From contig NZ_CP015164.1 of NCBI RefSeq assembly GCF_001766235.1, positions 2,608,501 through 2,672,500 of the forward strand: a stretch of 64,000 nt of DNA, read 5' to 3'. Position 1 is the first letter of the stretch. Each line of letters begins with the position of its first letter. A program made the position numbers and the translations under genes. Origin of the DNA: Acetobacter ascendens. Lineage in GTDB: Bacteria > Pseudomonadota > Alphaproteobacteria > Acetobacterales > Acetobacteraceae. The notes beneath the pieces were generated by a model. That model worked only from the letters and a program-made list of their open reading frames with translations, searched no databases and was not told the DNA's origin. Positions 42,311-56,039 of this stretch are shown here, piece by piece.

Positions 42311-43696
42311 ATGCAGACAGAGTGTAGCGCAGGCGCGTATGAGTTTCCAGCCTCCTGTGGACGGCGTGTTGTGGCCCGTTTTGACGGGGGTCGCATGAGT
42401 TCGGATGGGGGCGTCATTCTGGTGAAGCAGGCTGATGACATTCTGGGTCTCAGCCGCCGCTTTGCTGCCTGTTTTCGCGATGAACGGCATCCCGGCTTTG
42501 TGGAATACCGGGTTGAAGACCTTGTCCGTCAGCGGATCATGGGCCTGGCACTGGGCTATGAAGATCTCAATGATCACGATGCCCTGCGGCATGACCTGAT
42601 CTTTGGTCTGGCCTCGGGCCGTCTGTCAGGAGGCCGGGCAAACTGCGCAGCATTGGCTGGCAAATCTACACTGAACCGGTTGGAGCGCAGTGGGCACAAG
42701 GCAGATCGTTACTGTCGGATCATTGCTGATCATGAGGCCCTGGCTACCCTGTTCGTCACGCTCTACATGGACCGGCATGATCGGGCTCCTGCCCGGATCG
42801 TTCTGGACGTGGACGCGACCGATGACCGTATCCATGGCCATCAGGAAGGCCGTGCCTTTCATGGGTATTACGGCCATAACTGCTATCTTCCCCTGTATGT
42901 CTTCTGCGGGGATCATCTCCTCAGCGCTACCCTGCGCACGGCAGACAGGGACCCGGGGAAGGAAGCACTGGCAGACATCCGCCGGATCGTGGAGCAGATC
43001 AGGAGCCGCTGGCCCCGGGTGCGTATCCTGGTGCGTGGGGACAGCGGTTTCGCCCGGGACAGTCTGATGACATGGTGCGAAGACAACCACGTTGACTTCC
43101 TGTTTGGGCTTGCAGGCAACACCCGCCTGTATGACCGGATTGCCTCTTTGTCCGCTGAGGTTCGTGACGAAGCCGCCACGACAGGCAGAGCTGCGCGCGG
43201 TTTCGCCTCCTTTGACTGGATCACAAAGGACAGCTGGACGCGCCGCAGGCGGGTCGTGGCCAAGGCCGAATGGCGCCACGGCAACCGCTATCATCGCTTT
43301 ATTGTCACCACGCTACCGCAGGGAATGTCCGACCCCCGCCATCTCTACGAACAGATTTACTGCGCACGCGGGGATATGGAAAACCGCATCAAGGAATGCC
43401 AGATGGATCTGTTCTCAGACAGGACATCCTCCCATACCATCCGCGCCAACCAGCTCCGGCTGTGGTTCTCGGCCGCAGCCTATGTCCTGCTCACCGCTCT
43501 GCAAAAGATGGCCCTTGGCCAGACCAGCCTGGAGACGGCGACCTGTGGCACCATCCGCGCACGACTGCTCAAAATCGCGACACGTGTAACGCTCAGCGTC
43601 CGTCGGATTGTCCTGTCCATGCCGGACATGTTCCCCTGTCAGCATGAATTCGCCCTCGCTCATGCACGATTGCGAAGGCTCCGGCAGGCCGTCTGA
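42311..43696 (+). CDS. IS1380-family transposase (copy B)
   Basis: 461-residue DDE transposase (DDE_Tnp_1 type). Catalytic Asp regions are IVLDVDATDDRIHG (about 158-171) and RILVRGDSGFARD (about 238-250), and the Glu region is ARGDMENRIKECQMDLFSDR (about 355-374). It appears intact, with ATG at 42311 as in copy A. Confidence 0.92.
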   Translation: MQTECSAGAYEFPASCGRRVVARFDGGRMSSDGGVILVKQADDILGLSRRFAACFRDERHPGFVEYRVEDLVRQRIMGLALGYEDLNDHDALRHDLIFGLASGRLSGGRANCAALAGKSTLNRLERSGHKADRYCRIIADHEALATLFVTLYMDRHDRAPARIVLDVDATDDRIHGHQEGRAFHGYYGHNCYLPLYVFCGDHLLSATLRTADRDPGKEALADIRRIVEQIRSRWPRVRILVRGDSGFARDSLMTWCEDNHVDFLFGLAGNTRLYDRIASLSAEVRDEAATTGRAARGFASFDWITKDSWTRRRRVVAKAEWRHGNRYHRFIVTTLPQGMSDPRHLYEQIYCARGDMENRIKECQMDLFSDRTSSHTIRANQLRLWFSAAAYVLLTALQKMALGQTSLETATCGTIRARLLKIATRVTLSVRRIVLSMPDMFPCQHEFALAHARLRRLRQAV

Positions 43697-43957
43697 AGAA
43701 ACAGACAGTGCACAGACCACATAGCTTCCACCAACACTGCCTTCTCAGGCCGTGACACCCGCACTGCGTTCAGAACCCGCCGCCAGAAGCAGAATATCGT
43801 CAATATTCCAGATCGGGCTCCTGTGGGATGACTGAATTCTACAAAATGACCCGAAATTGCCTCAAGTGTGAGATGGGGTGGTTGCCGTCCTCCCCGCACG
43901 GCATCGCAATGTGCCAGAATGGTCGTTGGAAGAAACGACTGCGCGAAAGGACGGCAG

Positions 43958-44980
43958 ATGAAGGATACAGTGATAGGCGTTGATCTGGCAAAGAACATTT
44001 TCCAGGTTCATGGAGCTTCGCGTGCGGGCGAGGTGATGTTTCGCAAAAAGCTGCGTCGTCAGCAGTTTATGCAGTTCATGGCCACGCAGCCGCCTGCTCT
44101 GGTCGTTCTTGAAGCGTGCGGGAGCGCGCATTACTGGGCTCGCGAACTGGCAGGAGCTGGTCACGAGGTCAGACTGATCGCTCCGCAGTATGTGAAGCCT
44201 TTCGTGAAGCGCCAGAAGAACGATGCTGCTGATGCGGAAGCGATTGTCATTGCGGCCCGTCAGCCGGAAATGCGCTTTGTCGAACCACGCACTGAAGCGC
44301 AGCAGGCGCGTGGCGTTCTTTTCCGGGCCCGGCAGCGTCTGGTGCACCAGCGCACGGAACTGGTGAATGCCCTGCGTGCCGTTCTGTATGAATTCGGTCT
44401 CGTCGTGCCACAGGGGATTGCGCATATCAGACACATTGAAGCCATGCTGGATGAGGCGGTTCTGCCAGAGGCTGTGAAGCAGGAATGCCTTGATCCGCTG
44501 CGACAGATTTCGGAGCAGAGTGTGCGGATTGATGTCAGAACAAAGAAGATCAGGATGCTTGCCCAGGAAAGTGAAAACACCTGCAGATTGCAGAGCATGC
44601 CTGGAGTGGGTCCTCTGACCGCTCTTGCGATTGAAGCTTTTGCGCCTGACCTGCAGAGCTTCCGGCGCGGGCGCGACTTTGCTGCGTGGCTGGGGCTGGT
44701 GCCCCGTCAGTTCTCATCTGGCGGAAAGGAAAGGCTGGGGAAGATATCAAAAGCCGGGCAGGCTGATATCCGCAGGCTTCTCATCATGGGCGCCATGACC
44801 CAGGTGAACTGGGCCAGCCGTAAGGCCCCTGCACCGGGAAGCTGGCTGGCACGGATGCTGGCCCGCAAGCCCCGTATGCTGGTAGCCATTGCGCTGGCCA
44901 ACAGGATGGCACGAGCCATCTGGGCCATGGCAACAAAACAGGAGGATTATCGGGATCCGGCCCTGTCCGTGGCAGCCTGA
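43958..44980 (+). CDS. IS110-family transposase (DEDD), element 1
   Basis: 340 residues from ATG 43958 (MKDTVIGVDLAKNIFQVHG); the frame opens earlier but this matches the family and follows AAAGGACGGCAG. The RuvC-like N-terminal domain has the Asp in GVDLAKN, Glu in VVLEACGSAHYW and DxxD in KNDAADAEAI. The C-terminal transposase_20 region has SMPGVGPLTALAIEAF and FAAWLGLVPRQFSSGGKERLG. Intact. Confidence 0.93.
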   Translation: MKDTVIGVDLAKNIFQVHGASRAGEVMFRKKLRRQQFMQFMATQPPALVVLEACGSAHYWARELAGAGHEVRLIAPQYVKPFVKRQKNDAADAEAIVIAARQPEMRFVEPRTEAQQARGVLFRARQRLVHQRTELVNALRAVLYEFGLVVPQGIAHIRHIEAMLDEAVLPEAVKQECLDPLRQISEQSVRIDVRTKKIRMLAQESENTCRLQSMPGVGPLTALAIEAFAPDLQSFRRGRDFAAWLGLVPRQFSSGGKERLGKISKAGQADIRRLLIMGAMTQVNWASRKAPAPGSWLARMLARKPRMLVAIALANRMARAIWAMATKQEDYRDPALSVAA

Positions 44981-45094
44981 GCGATGGCTCGGCTCCCGCG
45001 GATGGAACCGGTAGGGGTGTGAGAGGGCGATGACCTGAATGGGCGCATGATCGTCTGATCCGGATCGGAAAAACCAGTGGATTTCTCTGTGCTT

Positions 45095-45233
45095 TAAAGC
45101 ACGCCTGTGAGATTTGGATCTGATCCGCTGATCACCATACTGGCCAGTGGCTTCTGAAAGGCCACATCAACAGGCCTTACAGAAGACCGCACACGATCAC
45201 ACGTCAATATGGGTCAGAAAACTCTTGCATAAC
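45095..45233 (+). ncRNA. putative seekRNA/bridge RNA of IS110 element 1
   Basis: In the 3' non-coding region. A hairpin-forming sequence GGCC-ACATCAACA-GGCC (45160-45176) is shared with element 2. TGTGAGAT at 45106-45113 equals the element's left flank/edge at 43867-43874. ACAGAAG at 45179-45185, 2 bases past the hairpin, equals 46642-46648, the other half of the interrupted IS1380 end. Guide RNAs from the 3' region are established for the IS1111 group; assigning guides here is inference. The ends of the RNA are not known. Confidence 0.6.
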
Positions 45234-45261
45234 GGACGGCAACCATATGTGGACGGCTCCC

Positions 45262-45395
45262 CCTTGCAAGGGGCTAGGCAAGAAAATGATCGGATCTTTG
45301 CTTCCATATGTCCGGCCTGTTGATGCGGCCATAGGGTCGCTGGCCAAGATGGCTTCCGCAGCGTGAGCCCCAAACACAGAAGCGGTCTTTGATGA
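45262..45395 (-). ncRNA. putative seekRNA/bridge RNA of IS110 element 2
   Basis: Read on the minus strand: CTTCTGTG (45382-45375) equals the element's left flank (46648-46641). Then 44 bases lead to the hairpin GGCC-GCATCAACA-GGCC (45330-45314). Two bases later ACATATGG (45311-45304) equals the right flank (45250-45243), which is the tail of element 1. Spacing mirrors element 1. Inferred guide RNA; its ends are unknown. Confidence 0.6.
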
Positions 45396-45523
45396 CCACT
45401 GGTTGCCACGGGTTTTCTCACGCCATGGATCGATCGATCACACCATCTGCTCTATTACTTGCAAGCCACGACCTCAGCTCGGCACGAGAGCGTCAAATGT
45501 CAGCGCATCGTGCCAGGCTAAGC

Positions 45524-46564
45524 TCAAACAGCAGCTGCGCCGGGTTGCTGCAGAAGGCGCTTATAGTGTTCGCCGCTGACCATCAGTTTCCAGGCAATCC
45601 GCGCAATCTTATTGGCAAGGGCCACCGCTGCGAGTTTCGGTTTTTTGCGCTCCAGCAATTCACGTAACCAAGATGAGGCATTCTTCCCATTGGTCCGCCG
45701 GGCATGCGACACGACTGCGGTCGCGCCAACCACCAGCGTGCTTCGCAAGACCTCATCGCCAGCGCGTGTGATTCTGCCAAGCCTTGTTTTTCCACCGGTT
45801 GAGTGATCCCTGGGCGTCAATCCGATCCAGGCCGCAAAGGCTCGACCCGATTTGAACAGATGCGGATCAGGCGTTTTCATCATCAGCAGCGCTGCGCCGA
45901 TCGGGCCAACGCCCGGAATTTTCGCAAGACGCTGACTGCATTCGTTGGCGCGGTGCCATGCCATCACCTTGCCCTCAAGCTGTTCGATTTCACCTTGCAA
46001 TTCAGCATATTCCTTTGCGTGAAGGGCAAACAACTCGCGCGTCAATGTGGGCAGGCTTTCGTCCGCAGCGATCCGATCAAGGAGTGCCTCAATCCGGCAC
46101 ATGCCTTTGGGCGCCGTGATCCCAAACTCGGCAGCATATCCCCGGATCGTATTGGCGAGCTGTGTGCGGTTCCGGATAAGTCGTGCCCGCATTCCAATCA
46201 GCATCAACGCTGCCTGCTCTTCCTCGCTCTTGAGCGGGACGAACCGCATTGTAGGCCGACTCATCGCTTCACAGAGGGCTTCCGCGTCGGCGGCATCGTT
46301 TTTCCCGCGCTTGACATAAGGCTTCACGAGCTGCGGCGCGATCAGCTTCACTGTGTGTCCCAGACACGAGAGCACCCGCCCCCAGTAATGGGAGGCGCCA
46401 CAGGCCTCAATCGCGATTTCAATCGGGGGCAGTTTCTCAAAAAACTTTACCATCTCCCGGCGGGATAGCTTCCTGCGCAAAACAGGCTGCTCCTTCGCGT
46501 TTACACCGTGCAATTGGAAAACACTTTTTGACGTGTCCATGCCAATACGGATAATTTGTTCCAT
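45524..46564 (-). CDS. IS110-family transposase (DEDD), element 2
   Basis: 346 residues from ATG 46564 (MEQIIRIGMDTSKSVFQLHG), which follows GGAGG; the longer frame to 46600 is less likely. DEDD residues lie in GMDTSKS (Asp), IAIEACGASHYWGR (Glu) and KNDAADAEAL (DxxD). The C-terminal half has KIPGVGPIGAALLMM and FAAWIGLTPRDHSTGGKTRLG. Clearly a different element from number 1, though the same group. Intact. Confidence 0.92.
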   Translation of the reverse strand: MEQIIRIGMDTSKSVFQLHGVNAKEQPVLRRKLSRREMVKFFEKLPPIEIAIEACGASHYWGRVLSCLGHTVKLIAPQLVKPYVKRGKNDAADAEALCEAMSRPTMRFVPLKSEEEQAALMLIGMRARLIRNRTQLANTIRGYAAEFGITAPKGMCRIEALLDRIAADESLPTLTRELFALHAKEYAELQGEIEQLEGKVMAWHRANECSQRLAKIPGVGPIGAALLMMKTPDPHLFKSGRAFAAWIGLTPRDHSTGGKTRLGRITRAGDEVLRSTLVVGATAVVSHARRTNGKNASSWLRELLERKKPKLAAVALANKIARIAWKLMVSGEHYKRLLQQPGAAAV

Positions 46565-46657
46565 GGGTGGCCTCCTCTGTGAATTCTGCAACGACTTCAC
46601 CTTGGCACATCGCGATGCCGTTGGGAGCCGTCCACCCCATCACAGAAGAAATCCGCG

Positions 46658-47201
46658 TCGAACGGATATTTCGTTATCTGGCCGCTGATTACGACAACGA
46701 ATACATGATGATCGACAGCACAATTGTCCGAGCGCATCAGCATAGTGCCGGAGCTCTCAAAAAAGGGGCACGGATCAGGCCATCGGACGATCACGAGGCG
46801 GGCTAACTACAAAGATCCATGCCATCTGCGACGCTCTGGGCAATCCAGTGGAACTCGGCATCACACCGGGACAGGATGCCGATATCACCCAGGCAGAACC
46901 ACTTCTGGAAAACATCGAACCGGATGCTTTCCTTGCTGACAAGGCGTATGACGCGGACAGGTTGATCGATCGGCTGATACAGCGCGGGATTACCCCGGTC
47001 ATCCCGCCAAAACGCAACAGAACGACACGACGGAAAACCGATTTTTCTCTCTACCGCGAACGGAACCTTGTTGAGAGGTTCTTCAATAAACTCAAGCAGT
47101 TTCGCGCTATCGCAACCCGCTACGATAAACTGAAATCGACCTTCCTCGCAGCCGTGCAGTTCGCCTCAATCATCATCCTGCTTAACTGACGACACGCCGT
47201 A
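46658..47201 (+). mobile_element. IS5-family (IS427-group-like) element, copy 2, right-end fragment
   Basis: Matches 28956 onward of copy 1 from TCGA through the right inverted repeat ending GACGACACGCCGTA. The left half is replaced by the IS1380 right end at the target TCGA. The right end touches the IS1031-group copy 2 without a spacer. Confidence 0.9.
46662..47189 (+). pseudogene. IS5-family transposase, C-terminal fragment (frameshifted type)
   Basis: Starts within RIFRYLAADYDNEYMMIDST and contains the A6 slip site and the whole orfB portion (MELGITPGQDADITQAEPLL to the stop at 47189). The N-terminal 75 residues or so are missing. Confidence 0.9.
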
Positions 47202-48106
47202 GAGCCCTTTTGGAAATTCACGGATGAGCGTTTCGGCGTAGCATGAGGCTTCCCATGGCGATGTGGATCATGGCCTCTGCGACGTCGATCCGCTGTTCGT
47301 AGTCCTTCACAAGGCGACGCCAGCGGATTATCCAACCGAAGGTCCGTTCCACAACCCACCGACGCGGCAGGATTTCAAACCCTTTTGCTGTCTCTGACCG
47401 CCGGATGATCTCGACTGTGAAGTCGAGAAAAGTGGCCTTATCCATCAACTGGAGGCGGTCATAGGCTCCATCGGCAAACAGGTGCTTCACCCAAGGCCAG
47501 CGTTTACGAATGGCATCAAGGATCATCTGTCCTCCTGCACTGTCCGAAATATCGGCTGTTGTCAGCTGGACCAGGAGAAGGCGGCCATCCGTATCAACTG
47601 CGATGTGACGTTTCCGACCGACGATCTTCTTGCCTGCGTCATAACCACGTGTCTTTGCGTGGGGTGCCTTGATACTCTGGCTATCAATGACACCACCCGA
47701 TGGACTGGTTTCGCGTCCTGTCGCTTCACGATCGAGCATCAGACAGACATCATGAATGGTCTGGAACAGGAAACGGCGCATCAGCCTGCGGAACCACCAG
47801 TAAACCGTTTGCCATGGGCCAAAATGAACCGGAAGCATCTCCCAACCGCAGCCTGAGCGCACGAGATAGCGCAGAGCATTGATGATCTCACGGAAATCGG
47901 TTGTCCGTTTCCGACCACGCCGGTTCGCAGGGGGCATCAGAGGCGCTATGCGCTCCCATTCCTCATCTGTCAGATCAGACGGATAGCGTTTCGTCTTGCG
48001 TGTAATTCCGGCCATGCGGCCTCGTTGTGCTGGCGTCCACATCCTGCCTTTGAATCACGCTCAAAACCTCTTGAAAACCTATCATAGCGAATTTCCAAAA
48101 GGGCTC
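47202..48106 (-). mobile_element. IS5-family (IS1031-group-like) element, copy 2, complete
   Basis: 905 bases with the same 18-bp inverted repeats as copy 1. The flanking triplets differ (GTA on the left, TTA on the right), so there is no target duplication. This indicates recombination or deletion after insertion. It ends 9 bases before the stop of the O-antigen-ligase-like gene. Confidence 0.93.
47218..48042 (-). CDS. IS5-family transposase (copy 2)
   Basis: 274 residues, intact, with DDE residues in VIDSQSIKA, LFADGAYD and VVERTFGWI. At least two substitutions against copy 1 (Thr for Ala in DREATGRE, Ile for Met in FGWIIRW). Confidence 0.93.
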   Translation of the reverse strand: MWTPAQRGRMAGITRKTKRYPSDLTDEEWERIAPLMPPANRRGRKRTTDFREIINALRYLVRSGCGWEMLPVHFGPWQTVYWWFRRLMRRFLFQTIHDVCLMLDREATGRETSPSGGVIDSQSIKAPHAKTRGYDAGKKIVGRKRHIAVDTDGRLLLVQLTTADISDSAGGQMILDAIRKRWPWVKHLFADGAYDRLQLMDKATFLDFTVEIIRRSETAKGFEILPRRWVVERTFGWIIRWRRLVKDYEQRIDVAEAMIHIAMGSLMLRRNAHP

Positions 48107-55965: not shown

Positions 55966-56039
55966 GGCTGGAAGAACGAGCGCGTGATTTTTTCCGCTTC
56001 AGATTATCGTTCTCTGGCGCAGTGGAAAGACACACAGAC

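What the first reader, a model, noticed from the sequence alone, without database searches (positions are those of the whole stretch)
45095..45395. Two IS1111-group elements carry 3' non-coding RNAs whose two variable segments match the two halves of each element's own insertion site
Seen directly: both 3' non-coding regions share GGCC-N9-GGCC (CATCAACA kept within the N9). In element 1 TGTGAGAT (45106-45113) lies 46 bases before the hairpin and equals the left flank/edge (43867-43874). ACAGAAG (45179-45185) starts 2 bases after the hairpin and equals 46642-46648, the far half of the interrupted site. In element 2 (minus strand) CTTCTGTG (45382-45375) lies 44 bases before the hairpin and equals its left flank (46648-46641). 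ACATATGG (45311-45304) starts 2 bases after the hairpin and equals its right flank (45250-45243). Four matches of 7-8 bases at mirrored positions are unlikely by chance. Guide RNAs (seekRNA/bridge RNA) are established for IS110/IS1111 elements; assigning these guides is inference.
Basis: partly seen in the sequence, partly recalled or inferred. Interest (0 to 1): 0.85.

Follow-up and report, generated by a model that had tools for sequence, protein, structure and literature searches.

The report
Jumping gene guided onto another's end
Two neighbouring bacterial jumping genes carry RNA-coding segments that match the sites they sit in: the first matches the end of a third mobile element, and the second matches the end of the first, so each RNA likely steers its element there and the second would probably cripple the first.

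Summary
Two IS1111-type elements, E1 (+) and E2 (-), have seekRNA/bridge-RNA-like 3' non-coding regions; a covariance model of 44 E1-family RNAs, E2 not among them, finds E2's at E=1.5e-13. The first segment of each element is a target guide (left half). The second (ACAGAAG; ACATATGG) is nearly constant and tracks the element's own right end (45 of 48 in E1's family), so it is a donor-end segment. Across 48 distinct guide pairs both guides track the flanks (0 of 20,000 shuffles). E1's guides spell IS1380A's right end; E2's spell E1's right end. E2 lies at an E1 right end in 22 of 23 distinct locations read, including E1s only 94-95% identical to the window's. Its exact 14-base target occurs 20 times in 49 genomes of the genus, each time at an E1-type end, and not at all in this genome. 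RNA production and E1 disablement are untested.

The parts
42311..43696 (+). IS1380A-type transposase gene; its element's right end is E1's target
   Evidence: NCBIfam NF033539 IS1380, E 1.4e-124; copies beside E1 annotated IS1380A in plasmid records
42895..42911 (-). Intact target of the reprogrammed E1 variant (CCCCGCAGAAGACATAC) inside the IS1380A transposase gene
   Evidence: variant E1s L231, L232, L233, L305 sit at this point of the gene and carry guides GTATGTCTT and CCCCGCAGA
43858..43873 (+). Left half of E1's target: IS1380A right end TGCCTCAAGTGTGAGA
   Evidence: intact copies in the same genome read TGCCTCAAGTGTGAGA|AATCCGCG, 23 of the 30 loci read
43874..45245 (+). E1 body (1372 bp), cut off from its last bases by E2
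   Evidence: unit shared by copies with and without E2
43880..43890 (+). E1 left subterminal inverted repeat GGTTGCCGTCC
   Evidence: pairs with GGACGGCAACC 45234-45244
43958..44980 (+). E1 DEDD transposase, 340 aa
   Evidence: PF01548 + PF02371; NF033542
45049..45201 (+). E1 guide RNA region (seekRNA/bridge-RNA-like), predicted
   Evidence: CM R1 157.2 bits (member of the training set); 32-pair consensus, 9 pairs with changes on both sides
45079..45086 (+).
45089..45102 (+). Inner hairpin GTGC-loop-GCAC separating the two target guides
   Evidence: helix 4, 99.4% of cells paired, 2 of 4 pairs with changes on both sides
45106..45113 (+). E1 left-half target guide TGTGAGAT
   Evidence: same as 43867-43874; tracks left flank in relatives
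45179..45185 (+).
   Evidence: 7/7 identical to own right end in 45 of 48
45234..45244 (+). E1 right subterminal inverted repeat GGACGGCAACC; part of E2's target
46643..46649 (+). E1 right terminal bases CAGAAGA, separated from the body by E2
   Evidence...GGCAACCA|CAGAAG is contiguous in E1 copies without E2
46650..46657 (+). Right half of E1's target: IS1380A outer end AATCCGCG
45246..46640 (-). E2 (1395 bp), inserted in E1's right end, core TG (inferred)
45249..45263 (-). E2 right subterminal inverted repeat GGGGGAGCCGTCCAC
   Evidence: pairs with 46635-46623
46623..46635 (-). E2 left subterminal inverted repeat GTGGACGGCTCCC
45524..46561 (-). E2 DEDD transposase, 345 aa, 41% identical to E1's
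45285..45439 (-). E2 guide RNA region, predicted
   Evidence: found by CM R1, built without E2: 59 bits, E=1.5e-13
45400..45407 (-).
45375..45382 (-). E2 left-half target guide CTTCTGTG = E1 right end CACAGAAG read on the other strand
45304..45311 (-).
   Evidence: equals the bases at E2's right junction; ACATA or ACACA recurs at the right end of E2 relatives in other sites

Best explanation
E1 and E2 are IS1111-type insertion sequences whose 3' non-coding regions carry a pair of segments matching the two halves of the site each occupies, E1's site being the right end of IS1380A and E2's site the right end of E1, and the folded RNAs likely act as guide RNAs that steer each element's recombinase there. 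The 5' guide is the reverse complement of the right half and the 3' guide equals the left half; the two flank a small hairpin in one predicted internal loop (sequence match shown, structure predicted with covariation support). A third, near-constant segment equals the element's own right end and likely serves the donor side (inferred). E2's insertion places 1.4 kb between E1's subterminal repeat and its last bases (shown), so E1 would probably no longer excise (inferred). The result is a three-tier nest, IS1380A <- E1 <- E2, in which one guided element is programmed against the end of another.
For: Empty IS1380A ends in the same genome: 23 of the 30 loci read, the other 7 carry E1. 48 distinct guide pairs: left guide 206 of 288 positions match own flank (shuffle mean 77, sd 7.7), right guide 183 of 288 (mean 77.6, sd 7.9); 0 of 20,000 shuffles reach either. 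With a one-base slide, right guide at least 5/6 in 38 of 48 against 1.5% of mismatched pairs; left at least 4/5 in 40 of 48 against 4.7%. E2 family: right guide at least 7/8 in 12 of 13 against 6% of 150 mismatched pairs. Natural reprogramming: E1 variants (94-95% identical) carry other guides (GTATGTCTT, CCCCGCAGA) and sit at the matching point inside the IS1380A transposase gene. Third segment equals own right end in 45 of 48. Structure: 9 of 32 pairs with changes on both sides, 0 of 500 shuffles; E2 found by the E1-family model. E2 at E1 ends: 11 of 12 full copies in this genome, 22 of 23 distinct outer flanks over the copies read. E2s of 99.86% and 99.93% identity sit at the same base in E1s of 94.3% and 95.1% identity (L310, L305). 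Target 14-mer: 20 places in 49 genomes, 20 of 20 at E1-type right ends, none in this genome. The one E2 read with a changed right guide (GGTAACC, L309) sits in an E1 with the matching changed end.
Against: No RNA data. Ten of 48 right guides and eight of 48 left guides fall below those cut-offs. The lone E2 copy (L083) has GG, not TG, at the right junction. One E2 (L237) has a three-base insertion in the left guide with the same host end. Some nests may be copies of one nest moved by IS1380A or by recombination, so 22 locations are not 22 independent insertions; the 94-95% E1 hosts show more than one. The left donor guide of the bridge-RNA model was not identified. Genome G162 keeps three exact free E1 ends beside one E2-occupied end, so E2 does not always saturate. 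Shuffles ignore relatedness.
Confidence: 0.9

Rival explanations
1. One reading: the first and second segments (TGTGAGAT + ACAGAAG; CTTCTGTG + ACATATGG) are the two guides for the two halves of each target.
For: Exact string matches in the window.
Against: The second segment is nearly invariant in elements sitting in unrelated sites and tracks the element's own right end, variants included: ACACAAG, AAAGAAG, ACAAAAG, AGAGAAG, ATAGAAG, ACAGAGG. A different segment tracks the right flank.
Confidence: 0.04
2. E2 recognises E1's end by protein or shared terminal repeats (both ends contain GGACGGC and GATGGGGTGG), and the guide matches are incidental.
For: E1 and E2 ends are visibly related.
Against: E2 relatives with the same terminal repeats sit in other sites that match their own guides. 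The lone E2 copy, in a Nudix-like gene, shares CTTCTG...GTTGCC with E1's end but lies in ordinary gene sequence.
Confidence: 0.04
3. E2 met E1 once and the pair has since been copied as a unit by IS1380A transposition or recombination, so the association is historical, not targeted.
For: Many nests lie in IS1380A and are nearly identical.
Against: E2 sits at the same base in E1s only 94-95% identical to the others while the E2s are 99.86-99.93% identical to the window's. Nests also lie outside the IS1380A right end: L077 and L080 elsewhere, L305 inside the IS1380A gene. One E2 lies alone at a guide-matching site.
Confidence: 0.1

Closest known systems
IS1111-family seekRNA elements ISEc11, ISPa11, ISKpn4, ISPst6 (Siddiquee et al. 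2024, PMC11187229)
   Same: DEDD transposase about 340 aa, subterminal inverted repeats, non-coding region downstream of tnp, two short segments matching the two target strands with the top-strand complement first (abstract, sections 6, 13, 14 and passages read)
   Different: Here the targets are ends (or the gene) of other insertion sequences, and one element's target is the end of another IS1111-type element; no RNA was measured
IS110-family bridge RNA, IS621 (Durrant et al. 2024, PMC11208160; passages read)
   Same: Separate target-matching and donor-matching parts of one RNA
   Different: RNA region in the right end, not the left; only one donor-side segment recognised here
IS4321/IS5075 into Tn21-family terminal repeats, and IS1383 into IS1384 repeats (titles seen in the reference list of PMC11208160; papers not read)
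   Same: Group members that target the terminal repeats of another mobile element, as E1 does with IS1380A
   Different: Those hosts are, from recall, DDE-type elements; E2's host E1 is itself a guide-RNA-type element, and the two guides that spell its end were identified here

Membership tests
IS1111 family | DEDD (RuvC-fold) N-terminal domain plus PF02371 C-terminal domain, about 330-350 aa | tested here: met
   PF01548 and PF02371 in both, 340 and 345 aa; NF033542 'IS110 family RNA-guided transposase'; match to IS621 and ISCro4 chains
IS1111 family | GL-P----S(T)G motif | tested here: met
   read from the translations: GLVPRQFSSG (E1), GLTPRDHSTG (E2); motif as given in PMC11187229
IS1111 family | Subterminal inverted repeats | tested here: met
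   E1 11 bp, E2 13 bp
IS1111 family | Long non-coding region downstream of tnp | tested here: met
   E1 44981-45233, E2 45523-45264
seekRNA (IS1111 type) | Two segments matching the two target strands, top-strand complement 5' of bottom-strand match | tested here: met
   order compared with PMC11187229 passages
seekRNA (IS1111 type) | Short RNA that co-purifies with the transposase and is needed for transposition | not testable with these tools
   no expression data
bridge RNA (IS110/IS621) | Donor-binding part matching both sides of the donor junction | tested here: inconclusive
   right-end segment met (45 of 48); no counterpart for the left end recognised by eye
bridge RNA (IS110/IS621) | Conserved RNA secondary structure | tested here: met
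   no Rfam family but tRNA reaches its gathering score in the window

The most novel reading that the evidence does not exclude
E2 is an RNA-programmed hyperparasite: a guided insertion sequence whose guides spell the working right end of another guided insertion sequence, which it seeks out, caps and sterilises. In this genome every E1 right end found is capped (12 of 12, one by a remnant). It follows E1 into differently programmed variants, and its guide follows changes in the host's end (GGCAACC/GGTAACC), as in an arms race.
Probability: 0.45. Interest if true: 0.8.

Novelty: new variant of a known kind. Interest (0 to 1): 0.62.

Why it matters
IS1111 elements aimed at the ends of other transposable elements are known. 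Here a guide-RNA-type element is aimed at the end of another, with both guides read from sequence and the target, in the 49 genomes searched, confined to that host's ends. If it works as inferred, it is a natural RNA-guided brake on a mobile element, and it makes two questions testable: how guides change target, and whether capping sterilises the host element. The 48 guide/target pairs are also a usable table of natural reprogramming in one clade, in which a near-constant donor-end segment can be told apart from the target guides.

Tried and rejected
GGCC-N9-GGCC as the conserved hairpin: exact only in E1 copies and a few relatives. Rfam at gathering threshold: only two tRNAs in the window. 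A third model hit at 55971-56012 (E=0.14) is taken as chance. E1-family members aimed at other mobile elements were looked for: L106, L109, L130, L131 and L161 lie just after an IS5-like transposase end, L122 inside an IS110-type transposase gene, L125 after an IS4-like one. The IS5 and IS4 names are recalled from the translations, not from a family search; the other elements' sites were not classified. Whether whole nests move as IS1380A units could not be settled. A left donor guide was looked for by eye and not found. Searches of the held papers listed no paper that by title or abstract start reports an IS1111 element aimed at another IS1111 element's end; subscription journals and bioRxiv preprints are mostly not held, and the listed papers were not read beyond PMC11187229 and PMC11208160 in part.

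Full report
Observation. The window lies in a 3.0-Mb genome in 4 contigs. Near-identical copies of both elements come from Acetobacter and Komagataeibacter plasmids.

What the two elements are. E1 (43874-45245, +) and E2 (46640-45246, -) each encode a DEDD transposase with PF01548 and PF02371, named 'IS110 family RNA-guided transposase' by NCBIfam and 41% identical to each other. Both have subterminal inverted repeats and a long non-coding region after the gene, which are IS1111 features (PMC11187229, section 6 read).

Where the ends are. E1 relatives at 64-99% protein identity sit in unrelated places, yet the left junction nearly always reads ..AGA|TGGGG or close to it and the right ..GGCAACCA|CAGAAG or a close variant (odd left ends in L089 and L097). 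So CAGAAG belongs to the element's end. In the same genome intact IS1380A right ends read TGCCTCAAGTGTGAGA|AATCCGCG. Of 50 pattern matches, loci were given for 30; 23 of these are intact and 7 carry E1. So E1 landed in the IS1380A right end. In E1 copies without E2, GGCAACCACAGAAG is contiguous. In the window E2 lies inside it. The lone E2 copy L083 interrupts a gene that looks like a Nudix hydrolase (recalled from its motif, not from a family search); relatives have it uninterrupted, e.g. GGTTGCTGGGGGTTGCC in L296.

Guides. Of 86 E1-family elements with both ends, 19 were dropped: 14 with the right end split by E2 (the window included), 3 with an anchor not found (L089, L091, L151), 2 mis-paired. 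The other 67 rows give 48 distinct guide pairs. At fixed offset the six bases before AGAT in the RNA match the left flank at 206 of 288 positions (shuffle mean 77, sd 7.7), and six bases near the 5' edge of the loop match the reverse complement of the right flank at 183 of 288 (mean 77.6, sd 7.9); no shuffle of 20,000 reaches either. Allowing a one-base slide in both real and mismatched pairs, right guide at least 5/6 in 38 of 48 against 1.5%, left at least 4/5 in 40 of 48 against 4.7%. The worst misses are L093, L098, L108, L118 and L147 on the right and L121 on the left. Shuffles ignore relatedness, and a few elements share a target.

Reprogramming within E1. E1 variants 94.3-95.3% identical to the window's E1 (L231, L232, L233, L305, L310) carry other guides, GTATGTCTT and CCCCGCAGA. 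In L231, L232, L233 and L305 the left flank is the matching point inside the IS1380A transposase gene; the window's own copy still holds that site intact (42911-42895, minus strand). IS1380A gene pieces lie on both sides of L231 and L232. L310's right flank does not match the window's IS1380A and its left flank is off the contig.

The third segment. ACAGAAG after the AGGCC helix strand equals the element's own right end, 7/7, in 45 of 48 (one further row, the tail-duplicated form of L231, gave no segment); of the 16 rows where either departs from ACAGAAG, 13 still agree. It is therefore read as a donor-end segment. The donor role is inferred from the bridge-RNA model (PMC11208160, passages read).

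E2 family. From 33 rows (L020 and L051 lacked the anchor), leaving out L079, L080, L239 and tail-duplicated rows of L002, L008 and L041, 13 distinct guide regions remain, four of them E2 itself. Right guide at least 7/8 in 12 of 13 against 6% of 150 mismatched pairs; left at least 5/6 in 12 of 13 against 16%. Offsets were free in both real and mismatched pairs. E2's guides are GGCAACCA and CTTCTGTG, which overlap to spell CTTCTGTGGTTGCC, E1's right end read on the other strand.

RNA structure. The alignment of 44 E1-family RNAs (A1; 49 regions were found with coordinates or skipped, and near-copies were left out) gives 32 pairs in 6 helices; 98.6% of cells pair, 9 pairs have changes on both sides, 0 of 500 shuffles reach that. 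The two target guides lie on the two sides of one internal loop around a small hairpin. A covariance model of these RNAs, E2 not included, finds E2's at 45439-45285 (-), full length, E=1.5e-13.

E2 goes to E1. This genome has 13 E1 matches. Twelve have a right end, and all twelve are followed by E2 sequence: eleven by a full E2, one (L076) by a short remnant. Of 12 full E2 copies, 7 abut E1 directly, 4 abut it behind a duplicated piece of E2's own tail (L071, L077, L079, L080), 1 is alone (L083). Over the loci listed, 25 E2 copies have 23 distinct outer flanks, 22 of them at E1 ends (right sides; L244, with a truncated E2, not counted). The best E2 place in each of nine unlike plasmid records lies next to E1 (in L239 behind three tail copies), as read in the loci; in seven near-copies of one of them the coordinates say the same. 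Other places in those records were not read. E2s of 99.86% and 99.93% identity sit in E1s of 94.3% and 95.1% identity (L310, L305), so there was more than one insertion. In 49 genomes of the genus the 14-mer GGCAACCACAGAAG occurs 20 times, each time at an E1-type right end listed; this genome has none, and four one-mismatch sites. In G366 both guide and host end carry the same C-to-T change. In G176 the three free E1 ends read are of the GGTAACC kind, while the occupied one is GGCAACC. That is suggestive, with small numbers. Against saturation: G162 has three exact free ends beside one occupied end.

Mechanism. [quoted passage not shown] At the Nudix-like site the left junction has TG and the right GG, as if each junction kept one partner's core (inferred). 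E2 separates E1's subterminal repeat from its last seven bases. Since movement of these elements needs the correct target around the donor (PMC11187229, discussion read), E1 is probably immobilised; this is untested.

Known and new. seekRNA-guided targeting is established, and elements of this group aimed at other elements' ends are known by title (IS4321/IS5075, IS1383). New here, as far as the searches of held papers show, is a guided element aimed at another guided element's end, with guides assigned, and a clade-wide separation of target guides from the donor-end segment.

Noticed in passing
L071, L077, L079, L080, L239 (E2); L231, L306 (E1): Pieces of the element's own 3' tail are duplicated in tandem (from 19 bp up to three extra 490-bp copies). 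In E2 the right end ACATA is joined to an internal NGG; in L080 (E2) and L231 (E1) the join is at the donor-end segment. Slippage or self-recombination by the recombinase could explain it.
   Followed up: partly
L106, L109, L130, L131, L161, L122, L125: Other E1-family members lie at the end of IS5-like elements, inside an IS110-type transposase gene (conserved KRQKNDAADA region) or after an IS4-like transposase, so aiming at other mobile elements recurs in this clade.
   Followed up: partly
L231, L232, L233, L305 and window 42895-42911: E1 variants with different guides sit inside the IS1380A transposase gene rather than at its right end: a second address in the same host element. The window's IS1380A still has that site intact.
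   Followed up: partly
G000 (50 places): The window's genome holds 50 matches to the IS1380A right end (47 exact); 23 of the 30 read are free of E1.
   Followed up: partly
window 46641-47189 and 47218-48042: The nest abuts reading frames that look like IS5-type transposase pieces (recalled, not searched); the IS1380A outer flanks show no matching target duplication by eye, suggesting recombination between copies.
   Followed up: no
L076 (G000:C1:179745-181147): E1 followed by only a short remnant of E2's right end, then other sequence.
   Followed up: no
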